NCBI RefSeq assembly: GCF_009882945.1
Contig: NZ_WTUY01000004.1
Location: forward strand, 272,858-336,857
Reading direction: 5' to 3'
DNA: 64,000 nt
Source of the DNA: Alcanivorax sp. DP30
Lineage (GTDB): Bacteria; Pseudomonadota; Gammaproteobacteria; Pseudomonadales; Alcanivoracaceae
The position numbers and the translations under genes are program-made. Positions 1 to 9,454 of this stretch are shown in pieces (the stretch's first letter is position 1; every line of letters starts with the position of its first letter). The notes below the pieces were generated by a model, which made no database searches, was not told the origin of the DNA, and was given only the letters and a program-made list of their open reading frames with translations.

Positions 1-1038
1 CTGGCCGGTGGAAAGGCCACTGCCGCTGATGGCGTTACCACCACCACTGCCAACACCTCCACGGCTCACCGAGCTGGCCGCCGCCACACCGCCACTGCCA
101 CCTGCGGAGGCGGTGATAAGTGCCCGGGAACCTGCCGCACCATTGGCTGCGGCCGCCCCCGTTGCCCGACTACCCGAAATTTTGGCTTCCGCCCCCAGGT
201 TGGAGGTCATGGAATCATCCATCAGGTCAGAGAACATATCGCTATGGGCCAGCACCCCTTTGGTTTCAGCGGTCTTGCGCGCCTTCTTGATCTCTTCAGG
301 CTTTGGCTCGTCCTTCTTCGCCACCTTGGGCTCTTCCGGTTTGGGCTCGTCGTCTTTCCTGGCCTGCTCCTGTTTCTTCTCAACAGGTTTTGGCTTGGCT
401 TTTTCCTTCACCAGCTTGGCCAGACGCTCGGGAATTTCGATCTCCTTGTTAGGATCCGGTGGCGGCAATACCCAGATTGCCGGAATACCACCAATGAGGA
501 ACATCAGGAGCAACGAAATCAGCAGTATCTTGCGCTGCCGCTTCTCGTCCTCTTCTGCTCTGGACCAGGGCAACAATCCAGCCGCAAAGACTTTCTCTTC
601 GTCCGCGTCTCGCTCAATGACAAAATCGAACTTGGCGTTTTCCAGTTCCTCGGTGACTTCAGCCAGGTGAAAGTTGAGTTCATTGATATTGCCCTGATGC
701 CAGGCAATTTTTTCATTCAATGAACCCTGCGCTTCATCCAGCACCTTGAGTTCGTCGTTGAACTGTTCGGCCACATCGCGAGTACGGGCGATCTTTTGCT
801 CATGCTCCGCCTCGGACACGCCCTCACCCCAGAAGAGCGACGCAGCTCCCATTTCATGCAGCTGGTCCAGTGATTCGCAAATCACACCCAGCAACTGAAA
901 CTTCTGGCGCTGCGGCGCCTTTTCCGTCAGTTCGGTTTCAACTTTTCGCAGCTCTTCCTGCAGGTCGGTGAGCGCTTGCTGCTCGCTTTCCACCCGTCCT
1001 ATCAGGTCCTGCTGTCGCCGTGCTAATGATGTATTCAC
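1..1038 (-). CDS. TonB-like energy transducer of AgmX/PglI (GltG/GltJ) type, partial
   Basis: Open minus-strand frame of 346 codons that runs off the window edge without a stop, so the C-terminus is missing. There is no ATG at its beginning; GTG at 1038 or TTG at 1050 (same frame) are the candidate starts, neither with a clear ribosome site. Visible layout: about 165 charged, Leu/Glu-rich residues likely cytoplasmic and helical; one membrane segment near residues 169-187 (KILLISLLLMFLIGGIPAIW); then PPPDPNKEIEIPERL and a Lys/Pro/Glu stretch with KPKPVEKK and EPKPEE repeats, as in TonB-type periplasm-spanning arms; then a Gly/Ala/Ser-rich region. It follows two TolR-like genes and a TolQ-like gene in one operon, so a role as the arm that carries force across the periplasm is inferred. 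The expected C-terminal TonB-like domain lies outside the window. Confidence 0.75.
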   Translation of the reverse strand, partial: MNTSLARRQQDLIGRVESEQQALTDLQEELRKVETELTEKAPQRQKFQLLGVICESLDQLHEMGAASLFWGEGVSEAEHEQKIARTRDVAEQFNDELKVLDEAQGSLNEKIAWHQGNINELNFHLAEVTEELENAKFDFVIERDADEEKVFAAGLLPWSRAEEDEKRQRKILLISLLLMFLIGGIPAIWVLPPPDPNKEIEIPERLAKLVKEKAKPKPVEKKQEQARKDDEPKPEEPKVAKKDEPKPEEIKKARKTAETKGVLAHSDMFSDLMDDSMTSNLGAEAKISGSRATGAAAANGAAGSRALITASAGGSGGVAAASSVSRGGVGSGGGNAISGSGLSTGQ

Positions 1039-1061
1039 AGGATCTGCCAATCTGGAAATTA

Positions 1062-1547
1062 TTATTTCTGATTAACCGCAAGTGAAATCTTGGTGTATCC
1101 GGCAGCGGTACATGACGCCATCACGCGTTTCATTACGCTGTAATGCACCTTGCGATCAGCCATGATCGTCACCTCGGTACTCTTGTCTTCTTCTTCTTCG
1201 GCCCCCAGACCGATGGAACTCTCCCGGATTTCCACCATGCGGTCACGAATCGGCGCAATAATGCCTTTGTCGTTCTCCAGCACTTCGGCCATGGAGACGA
1301 CCGCCTCGCCTTTCACGATCACCTGGTCCGCATTGACGGTCACCACCACAGTTTCCCGCGGCTTGGTTTCGACAATGGAATCCGGCAGCTTCACATCCTT
1401 GGGCGGCTCCAGCGGAGTATCCGACTGGTTTACCAGCAGATAGAGCAGCAGGATGGTGAAGATATCCATCAAAGAGGTCAGATTCAGACTGGAGCCTGAC
1501 TTGTTCCCGATCCGCGCCAGTCGGCGCATTCGACGCTGGTTTCTCAT
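1062..1547 (-). CDS. ExbD/TolR family protein, Asp-containing paralogue
   Basis: 161 aa single-pass inner membrane protein of the ExbD/TolR family, the proton-channel partner of TolQ/ExbB/MotA-like proteins. The membrane segment LTSLMDIFTILLLYLL carries the family's conserved Asp (Asp28). A basic N-terminus (MRNQRRMRRLARIG) should lie in the cytoplasm and a periplasmic domain of about 115 residues follows, with an acidic GAEEEEDKS insert. The ATG overlaps the stop of the preceding tolR-like gene by 4 bases, so the two are translationally coupled. Family assignment is firm; the machine it serves is inferred from the neighbours. Confidence 0.9.
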   Translation of the reverse strand: MRNQRRMRRLARIGNKSGSSLNLTSLMDIFTILLLYLLVNQSDTPLEPPKDVKLPDSIVETKPRETVVVTVNADQVIVKGEAVVSMAEVLENDKGIIAPIRDRMVEIRESSIGLGAEEEEDKSTEVTIMADRKVHYSVMKRVMASCTAAGYTKISLAVNQK

Positions 1548-2026
1548 GGCGCATCCCCTATGGAAATATCAGGGAACAGCACCTCGGACTCATCCGGGCC
1601 ATCTTCCTGCTCAATTTTGTGGATCTTCACCGTATCCATCACAGCGATCATGTCGTTGTATTCAATATCCGGCTCAAGAAGCACAGTGACATCTTCCTTT
1701 TCCGGGTGCTTTTCTTTCAGCCTGCGCAGCTCTTCAGTCAGTCCCGCCAGGTCATACTCACCATCCTTGCTGGGGAAGCGGTCGGTGATCACCTTGCCAT
1801 TACTGATTTCCAGTGCGTCCTTACGCACCATCACCTCAATATTGACCTTGGGCTTGTCCGCCACTTCACCTCCAGAACCGGAGGGCAGGTTGAGCTCCTG
1901 AATGGAAACCTGGGAAAACACCGCGGTTGCCAGCAGGAAGGGGATCAGAACCACCATCAGGTTCATGAACGAGGTGACGTCCAGTTCCGCTTCAGGCAGC
2001 TGCTTTTTATGTGTTTTGCGTGCCAT
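1544..2026 (-). CDS. ExbD/TolR family protein, Asn-substituted paralogue
   Basis: 160 aa single-pass ExbD/TolR-like protein. Its membrane segment reads LDVTSFMNLMVVLIPFLLAT. Aligned by eye with TolR, the position of the conserved proton-accepting Asp is Asn22; an Asp (Asp16) sits six residues earlier, near the membrane edge. The rest is a periplasmic domain of about 115 residues with a short SGSGGE linker. It lies between the TolQ-like gene and the Asp-containing TolR paralogue, so the stator may use one proton-active and one structural TolR-like chain. That division of labour is inference; the substitution is seen directly. Confidence 0.88.
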   Translation of the reverse strand: MARKTHKKQLPEAELDVTSFMNLMVVLIPFLLATAVFSQVSIQELNLPSGSGGEVADKPKVNIEVMVRKDALEISNGKVITDRFPSKDGEYDLAGLTEELRRLKEKHPEKEDVTVLLEPDIEYNDMIAVMDTVKIHKIEQEDGPDESEVLFPDISIGDAP

Positions 2027-2036
2027 GACTTACCAC

Positions 2037-2756
2037 TCAGCTGGAGGCTTCGGCGGAGGTATCGCCCTCTTCCTCATTCTTTTCTTCTTCCTGGTCCGCT
2101 TCGTTGGAAGCAGGCGGCGCCTGGAAACCACGACGGGACAGGGTGCTGATCAGCTTGAGGGTTTTCACAGAAATCATTTCCAGGCTACCCACGATGGCAG
2201 CAGTCTTGGAGTTGACCATGTTGAAACACACCAACAGCGGAATTGCAGCAATCAAACCAAACGCTGTGGTGTTCATCGCCATCGCGATAGAACTGGACAG
2301 CAGCGCTGATTTCTCTGCCGGGTTGGCATTGGCTACCGCCTCAAATGCAGAAATCAAACCGATAATGGTACCCAGCAGCCCCAACAGGGTGGCCACATTG
2401 GCAAACATGGAGATATATACCGTGCGCGCTTCCAGCTGTGGCGTAATTTCCATCATCGCTTCTTCCATGGCGATTTCGATATCGTCACGGCGGCGCACGG
2501 TACCCTGGACTTCCAGCCCCATGGTCAGAAGCTGGCCCACTGCCGAATTACTGGCTTCCACCATCTGGCGAGCCTTATCGAAGTCCCCCTTTACCAGCAA
2601 CGGATGGATATCATTCCATGTGCGCCGGTTAGCTCGCTCAAGAAGCTTCAGCTTGATAAAACGCTCGACGGCAAAGGCGCCACCCAGGATCCCCACAATC
2701 AGGATCGGGTACATCCAGAAACCGCCATCCTGGAAAAATTTGATAATAACGTTCAT
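2037..2756 (-). CDS. MotA/TolQ/ExbB proton channel family protein
   Basis: 239 aa inner membrane protein of the MotA/TolQ/ExbB family. First membrane segment near residues 13-31 (FWMYPILIVGILGGAFAVE); a cytoplasmic stretch; then two segments near 120-138 (VATLLGLLGTIIGLISAF) and 158-180 (MAMNTTAFGLIAAIPLLV), the last two with the Thr and small residues that line the channel in this family. The C-terminus is a very acidic tail (EADQEEEKNEEEG). It sits just before the two TolR-like genes, the usual motor order. It should conduct protons and power the envelope assembly coded by this operon. Confidence 0.92.
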   Translation of the reverse strand: MNVIIKFFQDGGFWMYPILIVGILGGAFAVERFIKLKLLERANRRTWNDIHPLLVKGDFDKARQMVEASNSAVGQLLTMGLEVQGTVRRRDDIEIAMEEAMMEITPQLEARTVYISMFANVATLLGLLGTIIGLISAFEAVANANPAEKSALLSSSIAMAMNTTAFGLIAAIPLLVCFNMVNSKTAAIVGSLEMISVKTLKLISTLSRRGFQAPPASNEADQEEEKNEEEGDTSAEASS

Positions 2757-2788
2757 GACTTCACTCTTCCTCAGAACCTAATGGTTGA

Positions 2789-3073
2789 TTATTTTTCAGT
2801 GCCTTCCGTGCTTACCTGATAAAACTCCAGCTCCCGCATGAATACCGGCTTGTCTACCGGTGTCATGTCCTCATTGAGAAGACTGGAAGTCAGATCCGTT
2901 TCCAGTCCGATTTCGGAAGTTTTCCAGGGCACGATGTACAGGGACTTGGGGGCGTCGTTATTCCCCATTACAGACATCCCTGATATTTCCTTGGTTTCCT
3001 GAGCAGTACCTTCTGCCTGAACCCAGGCAGGCAGAAGGCACAGCAGGAAAAACATATAAGCAAGCTGTCTCAT
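2789..3073 (-). CDS. small secreted protein of the TolQR/TPR operon
   Basis: 94 aa with a plain signal peptide (MRQLAYMFFLLCLLPAWVQA) and a mature part of about 74 residues; I recognise no family. The start at 3073 is chosen because it has AGGGAGG at good spacing and opens the signal peptide; a longer frame to 3184 would add an unlikely leader. It lies between the TPR lipoprotein and the TolQ-like gene with short gaps, so it is part of the operon and should act in the periplasm or outer membrane. Function unknown. Confidence 0.7.
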   Translation of the reverse strand: MRQLAYMFFLLCLLPAWVQAEGTAQETKEISGMSVMGNNDAPKSLYIVPWKTSEIGLETDLTSSLLNEDMTPVDKPVFMRELEFYQVSTEGTEK

Positions 3074-3087
3074 GATGCCTCCCTTGC

Positions 3088-3678
3088 CTATTGCGTTCGC
3101 ATTTCCAGATCCGAAATCCAGATCTGCACATCTTGATCGTCCGGCGTCACTGCGCTGTATGCCTGGTAGGCATCCAGTGCGCACTGGTAATCCTTGATAT
3201 AGATATCACACAGCACGCCCAGGTTTTTGTTGGCCAACGCAAACTTTGGATATTTTGTCAGAATTTTTTCGTAAGTCTTTCGCGCCTCGATAAACTGTCC
3301 CATTTTTCTGAGGAGCAGTGCGTACTCATTATTCGCGACGGGATTTTCTGGCTCCAATTCCAGCGCAAGTTCCAGTTTTTCCCTGGCCTTGTCTGGTGAT
3401 TCAAGCTTTTTGTAAGCGATAGCCATATTGATATAGGGCACCGCACTGGTGTTATTCTGGGCAACTAGCTTCTCAAGTTGATCGATGCCCGCCTGATAAT
3501 TTTCCTGATCCATTTGCAGCATGGCAGCATTGAACAAGGCGTTCTGCGCATCATCTAACACGATATTGCCGGCGGACTCTCGAGGGCCCGATGTGGTTGC
3601 GCAGCCGCTAACCATAAGAGTTATCAGCAACCCAACAGTTGGTGACATGATTCGAAGAGAGCTCAGTCGCATTTTCAT
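3088..3678 (-). CDS. TPR lipoprotein (GltE/AglT-like by context)
   Basis: 196 aa lipoprotein: a hydrophobic leader ending in lipobox VSGC (Cys26), then three to four TPR units between about residues 45 and 180, with typical pairs such as AVPYINMAIAYKKLESPDKA and PVANNEYALLLRKMGQFIEA. The start overlaps the end of the larger TPR gene by 4 bases. TPR lipoproteins of this size next to TolQR-like motors occur in the Myxococcus Agl-Glt system (GltE/AglT); that relation rests on architecture and gene content only. Likely anchored to the outer membrane, holding other machine parts. Confidence 0.8.
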   Translation of the reverse strand: MKMRLSSLRIMSPTVGLLITLMVSGCATTSGPRESAGNIVLDDAQNALFNAAMLQMDQENYQAGIDQLEKLVAQNNTSAVPYINMAIAYKKLESPDKAREKLELALELEPENPVANNEYALLLRKMGQFIEARKTYEKILTKYPKFALANKNLGVLCDIYIKDYQCALDAYQAYSAVTPDDQDVQIWISDLEMRTQ

Positions 3679-6600
3679 GACTCCACTTCCTCGGTAGACG
3701 CTGTCTCGGCCGGAACCACAGCCGCACCTGCGGCCTTTTCACCGGTATCATTTTCAGGCGACGCTTCAGTCGTGCCGACCGCCTCGTTTTCACCAGCCTT
3801 CTCCAAAGAAGAATCTGGGGCGGACTCATGCGTCGATACCGTTTCATTCTTTTCAGCAACGACCGAAGCGTCGCTGGCAACACCGGCTTCAATCGCGTCA
3901 CCAGCAAGAGCCTCTTTCTCCAATGGCGTCACCGGCAATCGGGGATTTACCAGTGACTGGTAACTCACATTATTGACCATCGTAATAAAGCCACTACTTT
4001 CCTCAAACTTGGCATAGCGGCCAGGCATCACCTTGGAAAGCCTGGCAATACTCTTGTCCACCCAATCGTTGTAGACACCCACATCAATCAGCCCCACGTT
4101 TTTCTCGTGAATGTCGATGGATTTTTCTTCGAAAGGATAGGACTGCTCATCCAGAAGGAATTCATACTGCTGCATTTCCAGCTCACTCAAACCGCTGGGA
4201 CGTTCTGAATTCAACAGCGAGCGACTAAAGTTGTAGTAGATTTCCGCAATGTAGTACGTCGCTGCCGCCGTCACCTCACCAATTTCGTAATCCACCAATT
4301 TACCGAAGGCAGAATTTGCTGCCTTCATGGCATCGCGCTTTTGACGCAGACTGGTTTCAAATGGCTGGGTCAGCTTGAGCTCGGCAAACTCGTCATACAT
4401 CGGCTCGGTGAGGGTCAGGTGTGCGGTACCGGCCAGGTAGCGCATACGATCAGTACGATCATCTGCTCCTGCTTGAGAATACACATTCACCAGTGCATTC
4501 AGTTCGTTGTGATAGCCCGCAATATCGCCTCTGGATTTAAGAATACCGGCAATTGCGCTATGCATTTCCATCACCGGTTCACGGGGGGCCGGGAAGTACG
4601 CGATAAAGCGACGACGAACATCGATGGCCTTATCCTTGTCATCCACTTCCATGTAAAGATCAGCAGCAACCTTCAACGCTTCGCGACGAATACCCTCATC
4701 ATCACTCTCACTTTCGATGCGCTCATATTCTGCCGCAGCCAGCGCCAGCTTGCCGTCTTCGCTGTAAACCTGTGCCAGTTTCTTGGTGACATCCGCCTGG
4801 AGTTCGTGATCAGGATAATTATCGCGGAATGCCCTCAGCACATTCGCGGAGCGGGTCCAGTCTTCCAGTTTGATCAGTGCCGTTGCTGCATCGTAGTCAG
4901 CAGCAGGACGCAGCCTGGATTGCGGCGCCGCCTGACCTACACGCAGAAAATGCTCTGCCGCCATCAAGAACTGGCCTTCGTCATTGGCTTGTTCACCCTG
5001 CTTGTAAATGGAGGCGGCCAGATTCTCCACCAGCTCACCACGACTCGGGTCATCCGGGGCCGTCAGAGTCAGCACATTCTGGTAAGAGGCTTCAGCATCA
5101 GCGAACTTCTCCAGCTCGAAGGATGAATGCGCCACGATCAGCCAACCGGAACGGCGTTCTTCCCGGGGCGCCTGCGGGAACATTTCCAGCATCTTGCGAC
5201 CGGTTGTCACTGCGAAGGTGTAATCCTTCATGGCAAAGATATCTTCCAGCGCGGCGTTCATGACCAAGGACGCCTTTTCGTGCTCCGGGAATGCCTCTGA
5301 AAAACGCAGGGAGCTGCGAATCACATCACGCTTGACCGTATCCTTGCTCTCTTGCTCCGCCACCTCCAGGTTCTTACGGTGGGTATACACTGCTGCGTAA
5401 CCTGCCGCAGACGCTTTCTCGTGAGCCGGGTAATCATAGGCGGTACGCTCATATTCCAGCGCAGCCTCATGATAGGACTTGTTCTCCAGCAACAGGTCTG
5501 CCAGCTGATAGTTCATTACCGGCGCCTGCTTGTCCTTCGGGAAAGAGTCGAGGAATTCGTGGTACCAGTGCTGTGCTTCAACAAAGTTGTCGGCCCGTTG
5601 TTTGGAAAAGTCCCTGTTCTGGTACATGGCGTGGTAGTAATTTGCCAGTTCGGTCAGTGTGGACTTGAGCAATGCCAGCACGTCCGGGTAGGACGCCACT
5701 TCAAAGTGCTGCCAGTATTTCGACTTCAGGCCATAGCTGGTGGCAAATTCCTTGTTGGCATCAATAACCAGTTTCGGAAAGCCCCCTTTCTTGTAGATCT
5801 CGATGACCCGCATATCAAAGTGCGGCGCCACCTTGTGATAGGGATTGAGCTCTACAAAAGTTTTATAGGAAGACGCTGCATCCGCATAGCGACGCTTATC
5901 GAGATAGTACTCGCCCAGATTGCGGTAGATATCCACTTCATAGCTGCGCTCGCCATTTTTCTTGAAGTAGTTGACCACGGAATCCGGGCCGCCCATGGCA
6001 GAAAAACTCAGACTGATAACCCGGAAGGTATCATCAACGCGCTTCTGCTCAATATCATCTTCCGGGCTGTCGAAGTCGTAACCAATACTGATCTTGTGGT
6101 CGAGCAAGGCCACAAACTGGTCCATGCCTTCTTCAAGCATGTCCTGCTTGTAGAAGGTCCAACCCAGCTTGTAGAGCGACAGCTCGTAGTAAAAAGAACC
6201 CGGCCCCATGTTAACGATGGCCAGGTAGGCGTTTTCTGCGTCCAGATATTTCTTGCGCGTAAAGTAATACTCACCACGCCGAAACTGGATTTCATCAATG
6301 TAATCGGAATTCGGGTATTCAGATGCGATGCGGTTCATTACACCAATGGCTTCATCCACTCGCCCCAGCTCTTCATAGGCCCGTGTCATCTGATAGAGCA
6401 CTTGATCGTTACGCTCGTACATCGGGTATTTTTCAAGCAATTGCTTGTAAAGCCCAATGGCTTCTTCTGCGCTCTTGTTTTCCAGACCATTGGCAACCTG
6501 GTCTTCCGGCACTGCACCAACTGTTGTCGGCAAATCTGTCTGGGTGGTTCGGTTTTCGAATTCGGACTCCGACTCCTGATCACCAACCACCGCGATGCCG

Positions 6601-6965
6601 GAAGCCGCAGCTTCCGCAGCTGTGGACAGTGCTGATTTCTCCGGCGCATCCATTGCCGCGACTGCAGCACCAGTAGCCGGCGCGGTCACGCCCACCCCCG
6701 GGCTCTCGAAAGTGCCGTATTCACGCTCGATTTTCAGATCGGCAAGACGACGAATCGCCTCCGGCGTCATGGCCGACTCCGGGGTTTCTTCCAGGAAATT
6801 CCGGTAACCCTGCATGGCCTTTTCGATGCCACCCTCGATAACCTCATCGGAAAGATCCAGCTTCACATTACGCAGTTCGGCAATGGTGCCTTTTTCCGAT
6901 ACCGACGCACAGGAGGCCAGCATCACGGAGGTGGCAAGCAAACCCACAAAACGAAAAGGCATCAT
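3675..6965 (-). CDS. large TPR-repeat lipoprotein (GltD/AgmU-like by context)
   Basis: 1096 aa. The leader ends in LASC (Cys19), a lipobox. Many TPR-like helix pairs run from about residue 150 to 870, for example EEAIGLYKQLLEKYPMYE and DAENAYLAIVNMGPGSFYY. An acidic, Ala-rich linker lies near residues 95-155 and a long Glu/Ala/Thr-rich, probably disordered tail ends the protein. ATGATG at the start overlaps the stop of the gene before it. Very long TPR envelope proteins accompany the Agl-Glt motor of Myxococcus (AgmU/GltD). Here it is probably the main scaffold in the periplasm; the specific homology is inference. Confidence 0.8.
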   Translation of the reverse strand: MMPFRFVGLLATSVMLASCASVSEKGTIAELRNVKLDLSDEVIEGGIEKAMQGYRNFLEETPESAMTPEAIRRLADLKIEREYGTFESPGVGVTAPATGAAVAAMDAPEKSALSTAAEAAASGIAVVGDQESESEFENRTTQTDLPTTVGAVPEDQVANGLENKSAEEAIGLYKQLLEKYPMYERNDQVLYQMTRAYEELGRVDEAIGVMNRIASEYPNSDYIDEIQFRRGEYYFTRKKYLDAENAYLAIVNMGPGSFYYELSLYKLGWTFYKQDMLEEGMDQFVALLDHKISIGYDFDSPEDDIEQKRVDDTFRVISLSFSAMGGPDSVVNYFKKNGERSYEVDIYRNLGEYYLDKRRYADAASSYKTFVELNPYHKVAPHFDMRVIEIYKKGGFPKLVIDANKEFATSYGLKSKYWQHFEVASYPDVLALLKSTLTELANYYHAMYQNRDFSKQRADNFVEAQHWYHEFLDSFPKDKQAPVMNYQLADLLLENKSYHEAALEYERTAYDYPAHEKASAAGYAAVYTHRKNLEVAEQESKDTVKRDVIRSSLRFSEAFPEHEKASLVMNAALEDIFAMKDYTFAVTTGRKMLEMFPQAPREERRSGWLIVAHSSFELEKFADAEASYQNVLTLTAPDDPSRGELVENLAASIYKQGEQANDEGQFLMAAEHFLRVGQAAPQSRLRPAADYDAATALIKLEDWTRSANVLRAFRDNYPDHELQADVTKKLAQVYSEDGKLALAAAEYERIESESDDEGIRREALKVAADLYMEVDDKDKAIDVRRRFIAYFPAPREPVMEMHSAIAGILKSRGDIAGYHNELNALVNVYSQAGADDRTDRMRYLAGTAHLTLTEPMYDEFAELKLTQPFETSLRQKRDAMKAANSAFGKLVDYEIGEVTAAATYYIAEIYYNFSRSLLNSERPSGLSELEMQQYEFLLDEQSYPFEEKSIDIHEKNVGLIDVGVYNDWVDKSIARLSKVMPGRYAKFEESSGFITMVNNVSYQSLVNPRLPVTPLEKEALAGDAIEAGVASDASVVAEKNETVSTHESAPDSSLEKAGENEAVGTTEASPENDTGEKAAGAAVVPAETASTEEVES

Positions 6966-8944
6966 GGCGTGCTAGCCTCCCCGTCTTTTTCTCCGACAGC
7001 AGCGTCATCCGATGCTTCACCACCGGCCTTACCTGCCTCTCTGATCTGCATCATTTTCTGCTGCGCTGCTTCCTGCTGGGCCTTCACCGCGCGGTCATAG
7101 CTTTCTGCCATCGCGAAGCGCGCCTGAATCTGGTATTGATCGATACGCTCACGGCGCTGCCTGAGTTCGTTGATCGCCATTTTCTCCAGCATGTGGCCCA
7201 CGCCATTCATGAGGTGCGCCACCGTCTTGTTGGCACGGTCGATCTTGGCCCGCGCCCTGACAATCTGCTCTTCATAGCCTTTATAGCTTTGCGTCGCCGC
7301 CTGGCGATTACGTACGTAGGAGGCATAGAGAGCCTCCATTCTCGCAACGTCGGCTTCCAGTTCGCGGAGGTGCTCGAAGGCCTCAGTCAGACGATCCTGG
7401 TAATCCTGATTCACATTCCAGCTGAGCACGCCTCGCAGCCGCCTGATGCGTCGGCGCGCGTCAACACCTGCAGGGCTCTCATCGTTCTGGTATTGACGCT
7501 CAAGCTGATCGAGCTGCATGGAGACAATCCGCTCATTCGCAGTAATCAGCATTTCCGGACGCGGAGCGACCAGCAAACGCTGCAGACGATCGCGAATGCT
7601 GTCGCGCTGCTCCATGCGAAGCAAAATTCGGGAATCCAGTTCGCGGAAACGGGCATCAATACCCGGCAACAATGGTTCGTAGTAACGGCGGCGCATTTCG
7701 ATCAGATCTTCGTAGGCTGAAAGGTTTTCTTGCCATGCCCTCATTCGCCGGCGCATATCTTCCAGATCCAGATAGTTTTTTAACAGCACCTGAAAGTCAT
7801 TGGATGCCATCAAGTCCATCAGATAATAGGTTTCCGGGGTTTCCGGCAGCTCACGCAGTCGAATCAGCCAGTTACTGTCCAACTTGATCTCTTCGCGCAC
7901 CATTGCCTTGAAGAAGTTGCCGTTCTGAATGCTCTCGATGGAATCATTAAGGCGGACCTTTTCCACACTGAAGGCATCCAGCGCGCTGCCATACAGCACT
8001 GCCGCGCGGCCATGCATTTCCAGATTGGCGTAGGAATAGGGGACACCCAACAAGGTTTCCTGCACGGCCTTGTTGGTGGGATTACGCTTGAAAAGAATGG
8101 TCCAGGGAACCAGGGCACGATCAAAGCGCTGTAACGCCACATCAGACCAGCCTGATCCCAGCAACGCCTTGTTGGAGAACGGCCCGTCGAGCCGAACCCG
8201 GTCAAGATACTGCTTCGCTTCTTCCGGTTTCTCTGCTTCCAGCAAACGATAGCCCAGCACCAGGTTGGCCTTGTCACGAATACCCAGCGATGGCTCGTCT
8301 TTTTTGCTCACCTTGATTTGACCAGTCTTGTCCAGCTGGTCGAGGCCCTTCTTTTCTTGTCCGGAGAGAATCAGGGCAATACCCAGGTTGTACCCCGCAA
8401 AGCCTTCATAGCCGGGCACCTTTTCCAGTTTTTCCAGTATGTCGATGGCTTCACTGAATCGACCATTCACAGTGTAGATCTGCGCACGCAGCAGGCGTTC
8501 ATCATCTCGCACACTTTCCGGTACCTTGCCTTCGATACGGTCGATGGCATGCACCGCATTCAGCTTTTCGCCTTTCTCGTAAAAGATTCGGGCTAATCGG
8601 TAGGCGGCTTCATTCTTGACCGGCTGCTCCACATCGCCTTCCAATACTGCGCTGATAGCGCGACCGGCCTTGCGATGCATCCGATAGGAGAGCTCAAAGT
8701 CCCCCACGGAAAACTCGGCATAGCTGGAATGAATGTGCAGCGGGTCCAGGTTCCGCTCATCCACCCGATAGTACTGCTCAAGCTCGGCGTCCAGCCGGGA
8801 GATAGCATCAAAGTACAGCCCTTGCTGGGCGTAATAGAATGCCTCCCCCAGGAACAGATCCCGAGGCTGCTGATCAGAAATCTCGTCAGCCCAGGCAGGC
8901 ACCATGGCGCACAGCCCGAACAGCACAACGTGTCGCAGAGCCAT
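6962..8944 (-). CDS. secreted TPR and coiled-coil protein of the TolQR operon
   Basis: 660 aa. Signal peptide MALRHVVLFGLCAMVPAWA without a lipobox, so probably periplasmic. TPR-like repeats occupy roughly residues 25-320 (EAFYYAQQGLYFDAISRL, EAAYRLARIFYEKGEKLNA, FAGYNLGIALILSGQEKKG). From about 380 to 640 it is charged and helical, with coiled-coil stretches rich in Arg, Glu and Gln (DLEDMRRRMRAWQENLSAYE). The C-terminus is low-complexity, Ala/Gly/Glu-rich. It overlaps the next gene by 4 bases and starts 3 bases after the preceding stop. I do not recognise a named family; a structural partner of the TPR lipoproteins is the best guess. Confidence 0.75.
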   Translation of the reverse strand: MALRHVVLFGLCAMVPAWADEISDQQPRDLFLGEAFYYAQQGLYFDAISRLDAELEQYYRVDERNLDPLHIHSSYAEFSVGDFELSYRMHRKAGRAISAVLEGDVEQPVKNEAAYRLARIFYEKGEKLNAVHAIDRIEGKVPESVRDDERLLRAQIYTVNGRFSEAIDILEKLEKVPGYEGFAGYNLGIALILSGQEKKGLDQLDKTGQIKVSKKDEPSLGIRDKANLVLGYRLLEAEKPEEAKQYLDRVRLDGPFSNKALLGSGWSDVALQRFDRALVPWTILFKRNPTNKAVQETLLGVPYSYANLEMHGRAAVLYGSALDAFSVEKVRLNDSIESIQNGNFFKAMVREEIKLDSNWLIRLRELPETPETYYLMDLMASNDFQVLLKNYLDLEDMRRRMRAWQENLSAYEDLIEMRRRYYEPLLPGIDARFRELDSRILLRMEQRDSIRDRLQRLLVAPRPEMLITANERIVSMQLDQLERQYQNDESPAGVDARRRIRRLRGVLSWNVNQDYQDRLTEAFEHLRELEADVARMEALYASYVRNRQAATQSYKGYEEQIVRARAKIDRANKTVAHLMNGVGHMLEKMAINELRQRRERIDQYQIQARFAMAESYDRAVKAQQEAAQQKMMQIREAGKAGGEASDDAAVGEKDGEASTP

Positions 8945-8947
8945 GAA

Positions 8948-9454
8948 TTACCGGTCTTTGAAATTGATGGTGTTACCCGAATCAAACAGGCTGATTTCGA
9001 CCAGGCGCGGTCCCTGTTCCTTGCTGAAGGTGTGGGTGGCGGCCTCCTGGAAATCCTGGCCTGATACAGTCACTTCAAGCTTGTGCTGCCCTTCCCGCAC
9101 ATTGCCGGTATAGATGCGCTGCACCCCCCCGGACTTGAGAGCCTCCAGCTCCTTGTGGGTATAGACGTGGTGCATGACATCTTCGCCATCCACACGGATA
9201 TCCACGGAATCCACCCGTGCATCCGGATCTGCCGCCATGGAGACGAATACGGAAACCTGGGTATTGGAGGGGTAGATCAGCTTCTCTTCCAACTGCAACA
9301 GCTCGGCAGAAATGGCAAGCACATCCTGCTTGATATCCTGAACCTGCTCGTCCAGACCTTTGATCTTGTCACGAGACACGTCATCCGCCGCACTGGCGAG
9401 CTGCGCCAAGACCAACATCATGGCCAGCGTCAGGCCCTTCATCACTTCCAACAT
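8948..9454 (-). CDS. secreted hypothetical protein, first gene of the TolQR/TPR operon
   Basis: 168 aa with a signal peptide (MKGLTLAMMLVLAQLASA). A short heptad-like helix follows (IKGLDEQVQDIKQDVLAISA), then a beta-rich part (QVSVFVSMAADPDARVDSVD, EGQHKLEVTVSGQDF). ATG at 9454 or, in frame, at 9442 (GGAAG upstream) can start it. It is the first recognisable gene of the minus-strand operon reaching to the window edge; no gene lies upstream on that strand for over 300 bases. No family recognised. The layout suggests a secreted partner with an Ig-like or carbohydrate-module-like fold, which I cannot confirm. Confidence 0.7.
   Translation of the reverse strand: MLEVMKGLTLAMMLVLAQLASAADDVSRDKIKGLDEQVQDIKQDVLAISAELLQLEEKLIYPSNTQVSVFVSMAADPDARVDSVDIRVDGEDVMHHVYTHKELEALKSGGVQRIYTGNVREGQHKLEVTVSGQDFQEAATHTFSKEQGPRLVEISLFDSGNTINFKDR

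What the first reader, a model, noticed from the sequence alone, without database searches (positions are those of the whole stretch)
1..9454. Proton-driven trans-envelope machine resembling Agl-Glt in a gammaproteobacterium
One overlapping operon codes for a TolQ/MotA-like channel, two TolR-like proteins, a TonB-like arm, two TPR lipoproteins (196 and 1096 aa), a secreted TPR/coiled-coil protein (660 aa) and two small secreted proteins. This set matches, by architecture, the Agl motor plus Glt scaffold used for gliding in Myxococcus, of which relatives in gammaproteobacteria have been noted but whose job outside gliding bacteria is, to my knowledge, undefined. A polarity, surface-transport or polymer-export role is possible. 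Seen: domain types and gene order. Inferred: that they form one machine.
Basis: partly seen in the sequence, partly recalled or inferred. Interest (0 to 1): 0.75.

Follow-up and report, generated by a model that had tools for sequence, protein, structure and literature searches.

The report
Proton motor paired with giant adhesin
A marine bacterium carries, in one run of eleven genes, a proton-powered envelope motor related to the one Myxococcus uses to glide, together with a 4,400-residue adhesin-like protein and a very large predicted outer-membrane pore, so this motor probably exports, holds or moves a giant adhesin on the cell surface.

Summary
The operon (an Alcanivorax) runs 19 kb further left: after the TolQ/TolR/TolR-like genes and a GltG-like arm come a 4,419-aa DUF11 (adhesin-stalk type) protein and a 1,760-aa protein with three OmpA domains and a predicted very large outer-membrane barrel. 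The Agl-Glt core in gammaproteobacteria, function unknown, has been in print since 2011 (PMC3169522); this genome carries such a plain core as a second copy. The window copy is a distinct subclass: of 370 sampled gammaproteobacterial genomes, all 13 with its GltD subtype also carry the barrel; within the genus the same 8 of 17 genomes have this type of GltC, GltD and barrel; in Desulfuromonadales the pair lies on the other side of the core yet stays linked. Best reading: a proton-driven trans-envelope machine whose surface end is a giant adhesin with its own pore, in logic like SiiAB/SiiE or T9SS/SprB. Shown: domains, synteny, co-occurrence. Inferred: force on the adhesin, export through the barrel, any movement. 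Not TonB uptake. New variant of a known kind; my literature searches listed no description of it.

The parts
8948..9454 (-). p168, secreted, no known domain; first gene of the operon
   Evidence: relatives at the same place
6962..8944 (-). GltC-like secreted TPR protein, 660 aa (type 1)
3675..6965 (-). GltD-like TPR lipoprotein, 1096 aa (type 1)
3088..3678 (-). GltE-like TPR lipoprotein, 196 aa
   Evidence: GltE model 36.9 bits (cut-off 225); PilW model scores higher (55.4, cut-off 154)
2789..3073 (-). small secreted protein, 94 aa from the preferred start
2037..2756 (-). AglR-like (MotA/TolQ/ExbB family) channel protein, 239 aa
1544..2026 (-). first ExbD/TolR-like protein ('AglQ' by gene order), Asn at the canonical Asp position
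1062..1547 (-). second ExbD/TolR-like protein ('AglS' by gene order), canonical Asp present
1..1050 (-). GltG-like TonB-type arm, 469 aa, cut by the window edge (whole: G000:C22:272498-273907 = L006:13641-15050); coiled-coil-like N-terminal part (by eye) instead of FHA. The operon then continues LEFT OF THE WINDOW with (a) the giant 4,419-aa DUF11 protein, G000:C22:258936-272195 = L006:79-13338 minus strand (window -13921 to -662), and (b) the 1,760-aa three-OmpA-domain barrel protein, G000:C22:253744-259026 = L007:12887-18169 minus strand (window -19113 to -13831); the form takes no coordinates outside 1-64000
   Evidence: arm; giant; barrel; coordinates checked

Best explanation
The operon encodes one proton-driven trans-envelope machine, a subclass of the Agl-Glt core, whose surface end is a giant fibrillar adhesin with a dedicated outer-membrane barrel. 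The AglR/Q/S-like channel turns proton flow into movement of the GltG-like arm; the arm and the periplasmic and outer-membrane TPR proteins pass force to the barrel protein, whose periplasmic OmpA domains tie it to peptidoglycan or to the scaffold; the barrel exports and/or holds the giant adhesin, and the motor drives its display, retention or displacement. Shown: gene content, domains, conserved linkage, co-occurrence. Inferred: that the proteins touch, that the barrel is the export route, that force acts on the adhesin.
For: All 13 of 370 sampled gammaproteobacterial genomes with type-1 GltD (10 families by the tool's labels) also have the barrel. Same 8 of 17 genomes of the genus have type-1 GltC, type-1 GltD and the barrel. 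All 11 genes in order on one contig in 7 further genomes. Giant hit in 78 of 80 barrel loci. In 12 of the 80 loci, from Desulfuromonadales kin and a Desulfatitalea, the whole core follows the barrel instead of preceding the giant, so linkage outlasts a change of order. 44 of 48 barrel genomes tested have type-1 GltD. GltG-type arm. DUF11 and isopeptide-forming domains above cut-off. OmpA domains detected: 3, 3, 2, 2 in four motor-linked barrels against 1, 1, 0 in three motor-free ones.
Against: No interaction, secretion or motion was tested. Giant-barrel pairs exist without the core nearby (G097, G325, G355, G183), so a motor is not needed for every such pair. G115 has core and pair on different contigs. 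4 of 48 barrel genomes lack a full type-1 GltD (two fragments, two none). The plain type-2 cores whose surroundings I read have no pair beside them. The barrel model is of middling quality (pLDDT 68.6, pTM 0.59). Orthology of the TPR proteins to M. xanthus GltC/D/E was not tested.
Confidence: 0.6

Rival explanations
1. Secretion motor only: proton force is used to push or pull the giant protein out through the barrel, as in energised type 9 export, and plays no part once it is outside.
For: Very large predicted barrel beside the giant gene; the T9SS translocon SprA is a 36-strand barrel, and with the motor disrupted substrates were trapped in it (PMC10994853, abstract start and passages).
Against: Giant-barrel pairs without a core nearby exist, so export may not always need it.
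Confidence: 0.2
2. Retention control: the motor senses or uses proton force to keep the adhesin at the surface or let it go, as proposed for SiiAB and SiiE.
For: SiiA/SiiB form a putative proton channel that regulates retention of the giant adhesin SiiE (PMC6272769 passages). The giant's conserved C-terminal module ends in a beta-alpha-beta-alpha-beta unit that could be a periplasmic anchor.
Against: SiiAB has no TPR scaffold or TonB-like arm as far as I recall; the OmpA-like reading of the C-terminal unit is not covered by any listed match.
Confidence: 0.2
3. Surface motility: the machine moves the adhesin along the cell and drives gliding.
For: Relation of motor and arm to the gliding machine; moving adhesins drive gliding in Flavobacterium and Myxococcus (PMC13104615 passages).
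Against: No gliding is known to me in these genera (recalled); no GltJ in the genome beyond the shared tail, no FHA domain on the arm; the 2011 paper argues that the core alone does not give motility.
Confidence: 0.12
4. Neighbours without a joint function: core and adhesin pair merely share a mobile or co-regulated operon.
For: Patchy distribution across families; pair and core can occur apart.
Against: 13 of 13 and 8 of 8 co-occurrence with one GltD subtype, and linkage in two gene orders.
Confidence: 0.08

Closest known systems
Agl-Glt core complex of gammaproteobacteria and Geobacter (Luciano et al. 2011, Group B genes; PMC3169522)
   Same: aglR/Q/S plus gltC/D/E/G-type genes in one cluster; additional small gene(s)
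   Different: Window copy carries a giant DUF11 protein and an OmpA-barrel protein in the operon and lies in its own GltD clade; the 2011 text has no occurrence of 'adhesin' or 'DUF11'; its supplementary gene maps could not be opened
Myxococcus xanthus Agl-Glt gliding machine and Agl-Nfs spore-coat machine
   Same: Motor type, TonB-like arm, TPR scaffold; surface cargo moved by proton force
   Different: No FHA on the arm, no full GltJ; the adhesin-like protein is a giant DUF11 protein, not the vWA protein CglB (named in PMC13104615 passages)
SiiAB proton channel with giant adhesin SiiE of Salmonella
   Same: Proton channel acting with a giant adhesin built of Ig-like domains (PMC6272769 passages)
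   Different: SiiE leaves by a type I secretion system; here an N-terminal signal peptide (by eye) and an OmpA-barrel protein, plus arm and TPR scaffold
Type 9 secretion and SprB gliding of Bacteroidota
   Same: Proton motor, very large barrel, giant surface adhesin; similarity of logic
   Different: No sequence membership shown; the PorW/SprE model touches the GltD-like protein at 43.8 bits against a cut-off of 250, as other TPR models do
DUF11 (CLIPPER) fibrillar adhesins
   Same: Tandem DUF11 and isopeptide-forming domains (PMC12617251 passages)
   Different: Here with a dedicated barrel partner and a linked motor

Membership tests
Agl-Glt core complex (Luciano 2011 Group B) | TolQ-like gene with two TolR-like genes | tested here: met
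Agl-Glt core complex (Luciano 2011 Group B) | GltG-type transmembrane arm with TonB-like/AgmX-PglI tail | tested here: met
   tail model 64.3 bits over cut-off 40; GltG full-length model 68 bits, under its cut-off of 650, profile positions 385-648
Agl-Glt core complex (Luciano 2011 Group B) | GltC, GltD, GltE orthologues | tested here: inconclusive
   TPR architecture and sizes fit except GltE; only a GltE model rang, under its cut-off and behind PilW
Agl-Glt core complex (Luciano 2011 Group B) | All in one gene cluster | tested here: met
Agl-Glt core complex (Luciano 2011 Group B) | Each protein in one clade with its M. xanthus counterpart | not tested
Myxococcus gliding machine | FHA domain on the GltG arm | tested here: not met
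   no FHA among Pfam matches up to E 0.1
Myxococcus gliding machine | GltJ | tested here: not met
   in the whole genome only the shared tail of the window arm, 20.7 bits against a cut-off of 450
Myxococcus gliding machine | GltA, B, F, H, I, K and CglB | not tested
   no model tried
TonB-ExbBD uptake | ExbB/ExbD equivalogs and a neighbouring TonB-dependent receptor | tested here: not met
   exbB 47.4 bits (cut-off 206.2), ExbD_1 37.9 (cut-off 152.95); no receptor gene beside the operon by eye
Tol-Pal | TolQ/TolR equivalogs with tolB and pal | tested here: not met
   tolQ 57.8 bits (cut-off 221), tolR 33.8 and 31.1 (cut-off 127.3); no tolB or pal in the operon by eye
Type 9 secretion system | Por/Gld/Spr proteins and substrates with type 9 C-terminal domain | tested here: inconclusive
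   PorW/SprE 43.8 bits (cut-off 250) on the GltD-like protein; other components not searched; SprA not among rows shown
DUF11 (CLIPPER) fibrillar adhesin | Tandem DUF11/isopeptide-forming domains in a long exported protein | tested here: met
   DUF11 230.2 bits, nine stretches; RrgB_K2N_iso_D2 200.6 bits, six stretches; signal peptide by eye; isopeptide bonds and adhesion not tested

The most novel reading that the evidence does not exclude
A so far unnamed proteobacterial machine in which an Agl-type proton motor works a giant isopeptide-locked adhesin through its own barrel of some 36-40 strands: an energised adhesin arm for active attachment, retraction or surface movement, evolved apart from type 9 secretion and SprB, spread over Alcanivorax, Microbulbifer, beta-type sulfur and iron oxidisers and Desulfuromonadales, and run by an asymmetric motor with one ExbD-like subunit that keeps the proton-carrying Asp and one that has Asn there.
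Probability: 0.35. Interest if true: 0.9.

Novelty: new variant of a known kind. Interest (0 to 1): 0.7.

Why it matters
What the Agl-Glt core does outside gliding and sporulating bacteria has been left open since 2011. A subclass whose sampled carriers also hold a giant adhesin and a matching pore gives that question a concrete, testable answer, and suggests that proton motors acting on giant adhesins arose more than once (SiiAB/SiiE, GldLM/SprB and this one). It also points to cultured hosts (Microbulbifer, Alcanivorax, Geotalea) in which force transfer to the outer membrane could be studied.

Tried and rejected
AglR tree with the genome's own channel proteins as outgroup: the one outgroup row was a wrong reading frame; result discarded. 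The other three proton-channel loci of the genome (L001-L003) were not studied. PDB sequence search with the GltG-like arm found nothing up to E 0.1; with the AglR-like protein only ExbB and TolQ, best 2.3e-8. OmpA-like reading of the giant's last unit: rests on the strand-helix order of the model; the VIA-align rows shown end at model residue 243 or before, so it is unproven. SprA was not among the rows shown for the barrel, which proves nothing either way. MglA/MglB-type polarity genes: a small GTPase with two roadblock-type proteins exists elsewhere in the genome, not linked. Polysaccharide export: no gene or domain in the operon speaks for it. Whether gliding gammaproteobacteria such as Beggiatoa carry the operon was not tested by any search. 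Literature searches: (listings; open-access papers only); none listed a description of this giant-adhesin subclass. Papers seen beyond listings: PMC3169522 (abstract, outline, sections 6 and 7, passages), PMC3858216, PMC12204202, PMC12617251, PMC10994853, PMC13104615, PMC7004002, PMC6272769 (passages only).

Full report
What is there. The window (G000:C22:272858-336857) cuts it. Left of the window (stretches fetched) lie the rest of the TonB-like gene, a 4,419-aa protein and a 1,760-aa protein, then unrelated genes. The genome is very probably an Alcanivorax: the best segment of the barrel protein is 96% identical to A. nanhaiticus.

Core. The arm matches NCBIfam GltG at 5.9e-19 over the C-terminal part of the model (68 bits, cut-off 650) and the AgmX/PglI tail above its cut-off. 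In the whole genome two places pass that tail's cut-off, this arm and the one at C20; a third match is under it. Tol and Exb equivalog models stay far below their cut-offs. Sizes in M. xanthus after Luciano et al. 2011 (PMC3169522, sections 6 and 7 read, other passages by search) are GltC 673, GltD 1191, GltE 471, GltG 640, AglR 245, AglQ 162, AglS 194 aa; here 660, 1096, 196, 469, 239, 160, 161. The GltE-like protein is thus much shorter, and the arm lacks a detectable FHA domain. That paper reports the clustered core in gammaproteobacteria and Geobacter, function unknown, with an additional gene. Membership is well supported for motor and arm, and by architecture only for the TPR proteins.

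Paralogues. GltC-like genes occur three times in the genome: the window copy ('type 1'), C20, a core without giant or barrel beside it ('type 2'), and C23, p168 and GltC only ('type 3'). Type 2 fits what the 2011 paper describes; I could not open its gene maps.

Co-occurrence in the class. Of 370 gammaproteobacterial genomes, 94 have a GltD match at 1e-30 or better; 13 score 846 bits or more (type 1, window genome included), the next one 694. Barrel matches at 1e-3 or better occur in 53 of 370, most of them weak or partial; 19 score about 800 bits or more (lowest 799.9). All 13 type-1 GltD genomes are among these 19. Of the other six, G237 is a fragment at a contig end; G097, G325, G355, G183 and G287 have no type-1 GltD. 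In four of these (G287 was not fetched) the pair stands without core genes in the stretch fetched, and G183 has a type-2 core elsewhere. The 13 belong to 10 families. I give no P-value, because genomes are not independent.

Co-occurrence in the genus. Of 17 genomes (G000-G016), 8 have type-1 GltC, the same 8 type-1 GltD (1581 bits or more) and the same 8 the barrel (2043 bits or more). The other 9 have none of the three at such scores; 8 of the 9 show only distant barrel matches (44 bits or less), and 8 of the 9 have a type-2 GltD.

Synteny. All 11 genes stand in one order on one contig in G318, G356, G053, G163, G193, G371 and G403. In G327 GltC was not recovered as an open frame. G284, G127 and G269 break at contig ends; G115 has core and pair on different contigs. 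A giant hit lies in 78 of these 80 loci (not L130, L164). Twelve loci (L123, L126-L130, L132, L133, L136, L137, L162, L184), all labelled Desulfuromonadales kin or Desulfatitalea, have the whole core downstream of the barrel; eleven loci show the arm upstream of the giant as in the window; 29 of 80 hold any core gene within reach. I handed 48 of the 80 genomes to a GltD search: 46 match, 44 with a type-1 gene of 968 bits or more, two with fragments (G427, G431), two without (G414, G428). G406 of that set looks the same as G008 of the genus set (same coordinates and score). Some loci are metagenome bins whose labels may be wrong.

Subclass. A GltD tree of 30 rows puts 26 type-1 rows in one clade (100/99) apart from four type-2 rows (midpoint root, long branches among type 2, only four type-2 rows). 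OmpA domains detected: window 3, G115 3, G053 2, G403 2, against motor-free G097 1, G183 1, G325 0. This fits, but does not prove, that the extra OmpA domains connect barrel and motor scaffold; seven proteins are few.

Motor detail. At the position that I align by eye with the proton-carrying Asp of ExbD, the first TolR-like protein has Asn in 38 of 38 pattern matches and the second Asp in 38 of 38 (matches over loci in hand, some loci overlap, only sequences that fit my pattern are counted). M. xanthus AglQ has an essential D28 (PMC3858216 passages), so the names Q and S given here follow gene order, not sequence.

How it probably works. Proton flow through the AglR/Q/S-like channel moves the GltG-like arm; scaffold proteins carry the force to the barrel; the barrel exports or holds the giant adhesin. 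The first step is established for the family, and AglR interacted with GltG of M. xanthus in a two-hybrid assay; the rest is inference. SiiAB/SiiE shows that a proton channel can govern retention of a giant adhesin (PMC6272769 passages); a 2025 study counts AglRQS and SiiAB among pentamer:dimer motors of this kind (PMC12204202 passages); type 9 secretion with SprB shows motor, giant barrel and moving adhesin together (PMC10994853 and PMC13104615 passages). Export, retention and movement cannot be told apart from sequence.

Verdict. Observation confirmed; interpretation partly supported and in its core already published; the window copy is a distinct, widely spread variant with a giant adhesin-like protein and a giant pore, which gives the old open question a testable form.

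Noticed in passing
L151, L152 (Microbulbifer sp. YPW16); L109 (Alcanivorax nanhaiticus): Tandem copies of the cargo genes: in YPW16 two giant-barrel pairs about 16 kb apart whose barrel proteins are identical over 1742 residues although the DNA differs; in A. nanhaiticus a second giant-like gene follows the barrel.
   Followed up: partly
L190:4866-13623 (G000:C22 about 815-824 kb): A second, unlinked set: 379-aa, 1803-aa and 720-aa frames; the middle one matches the barrel distantly (93.7 bits) and by eye has DUF11-like and OmpA-like parts. Distant barrel matches in frames of about 2,000 aa recur in the class sample.
   Followed up: partly
L022, G000:C23:157874-160246: p168 and a GltC-like gene without motor genes in the stretch read (type 3); further GltC-like matches, not sorted by type, occur in most genomes of the genus.
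   Followed up: no
L189 (G000:C20 about 117-120 kb): A small GTPase with two roadblock-type proteins, recalling MglA/MglB, not linked to the operon.
   Followed up: no
L098, L099 (G138:C2:440002-463995): A barrel relative inside one frame of at least 7,997 aa (11,777 aa open frame), as if giant and barrel were fused.
   Followed up: no
Alignment A1, residues 288, 294, 441 and 630 of the 1,760-aa protein (left of the window): Four cysteines upstream of the barrel part are invariant in all 12 aligned sequences; role unknown.
   Followed up: no
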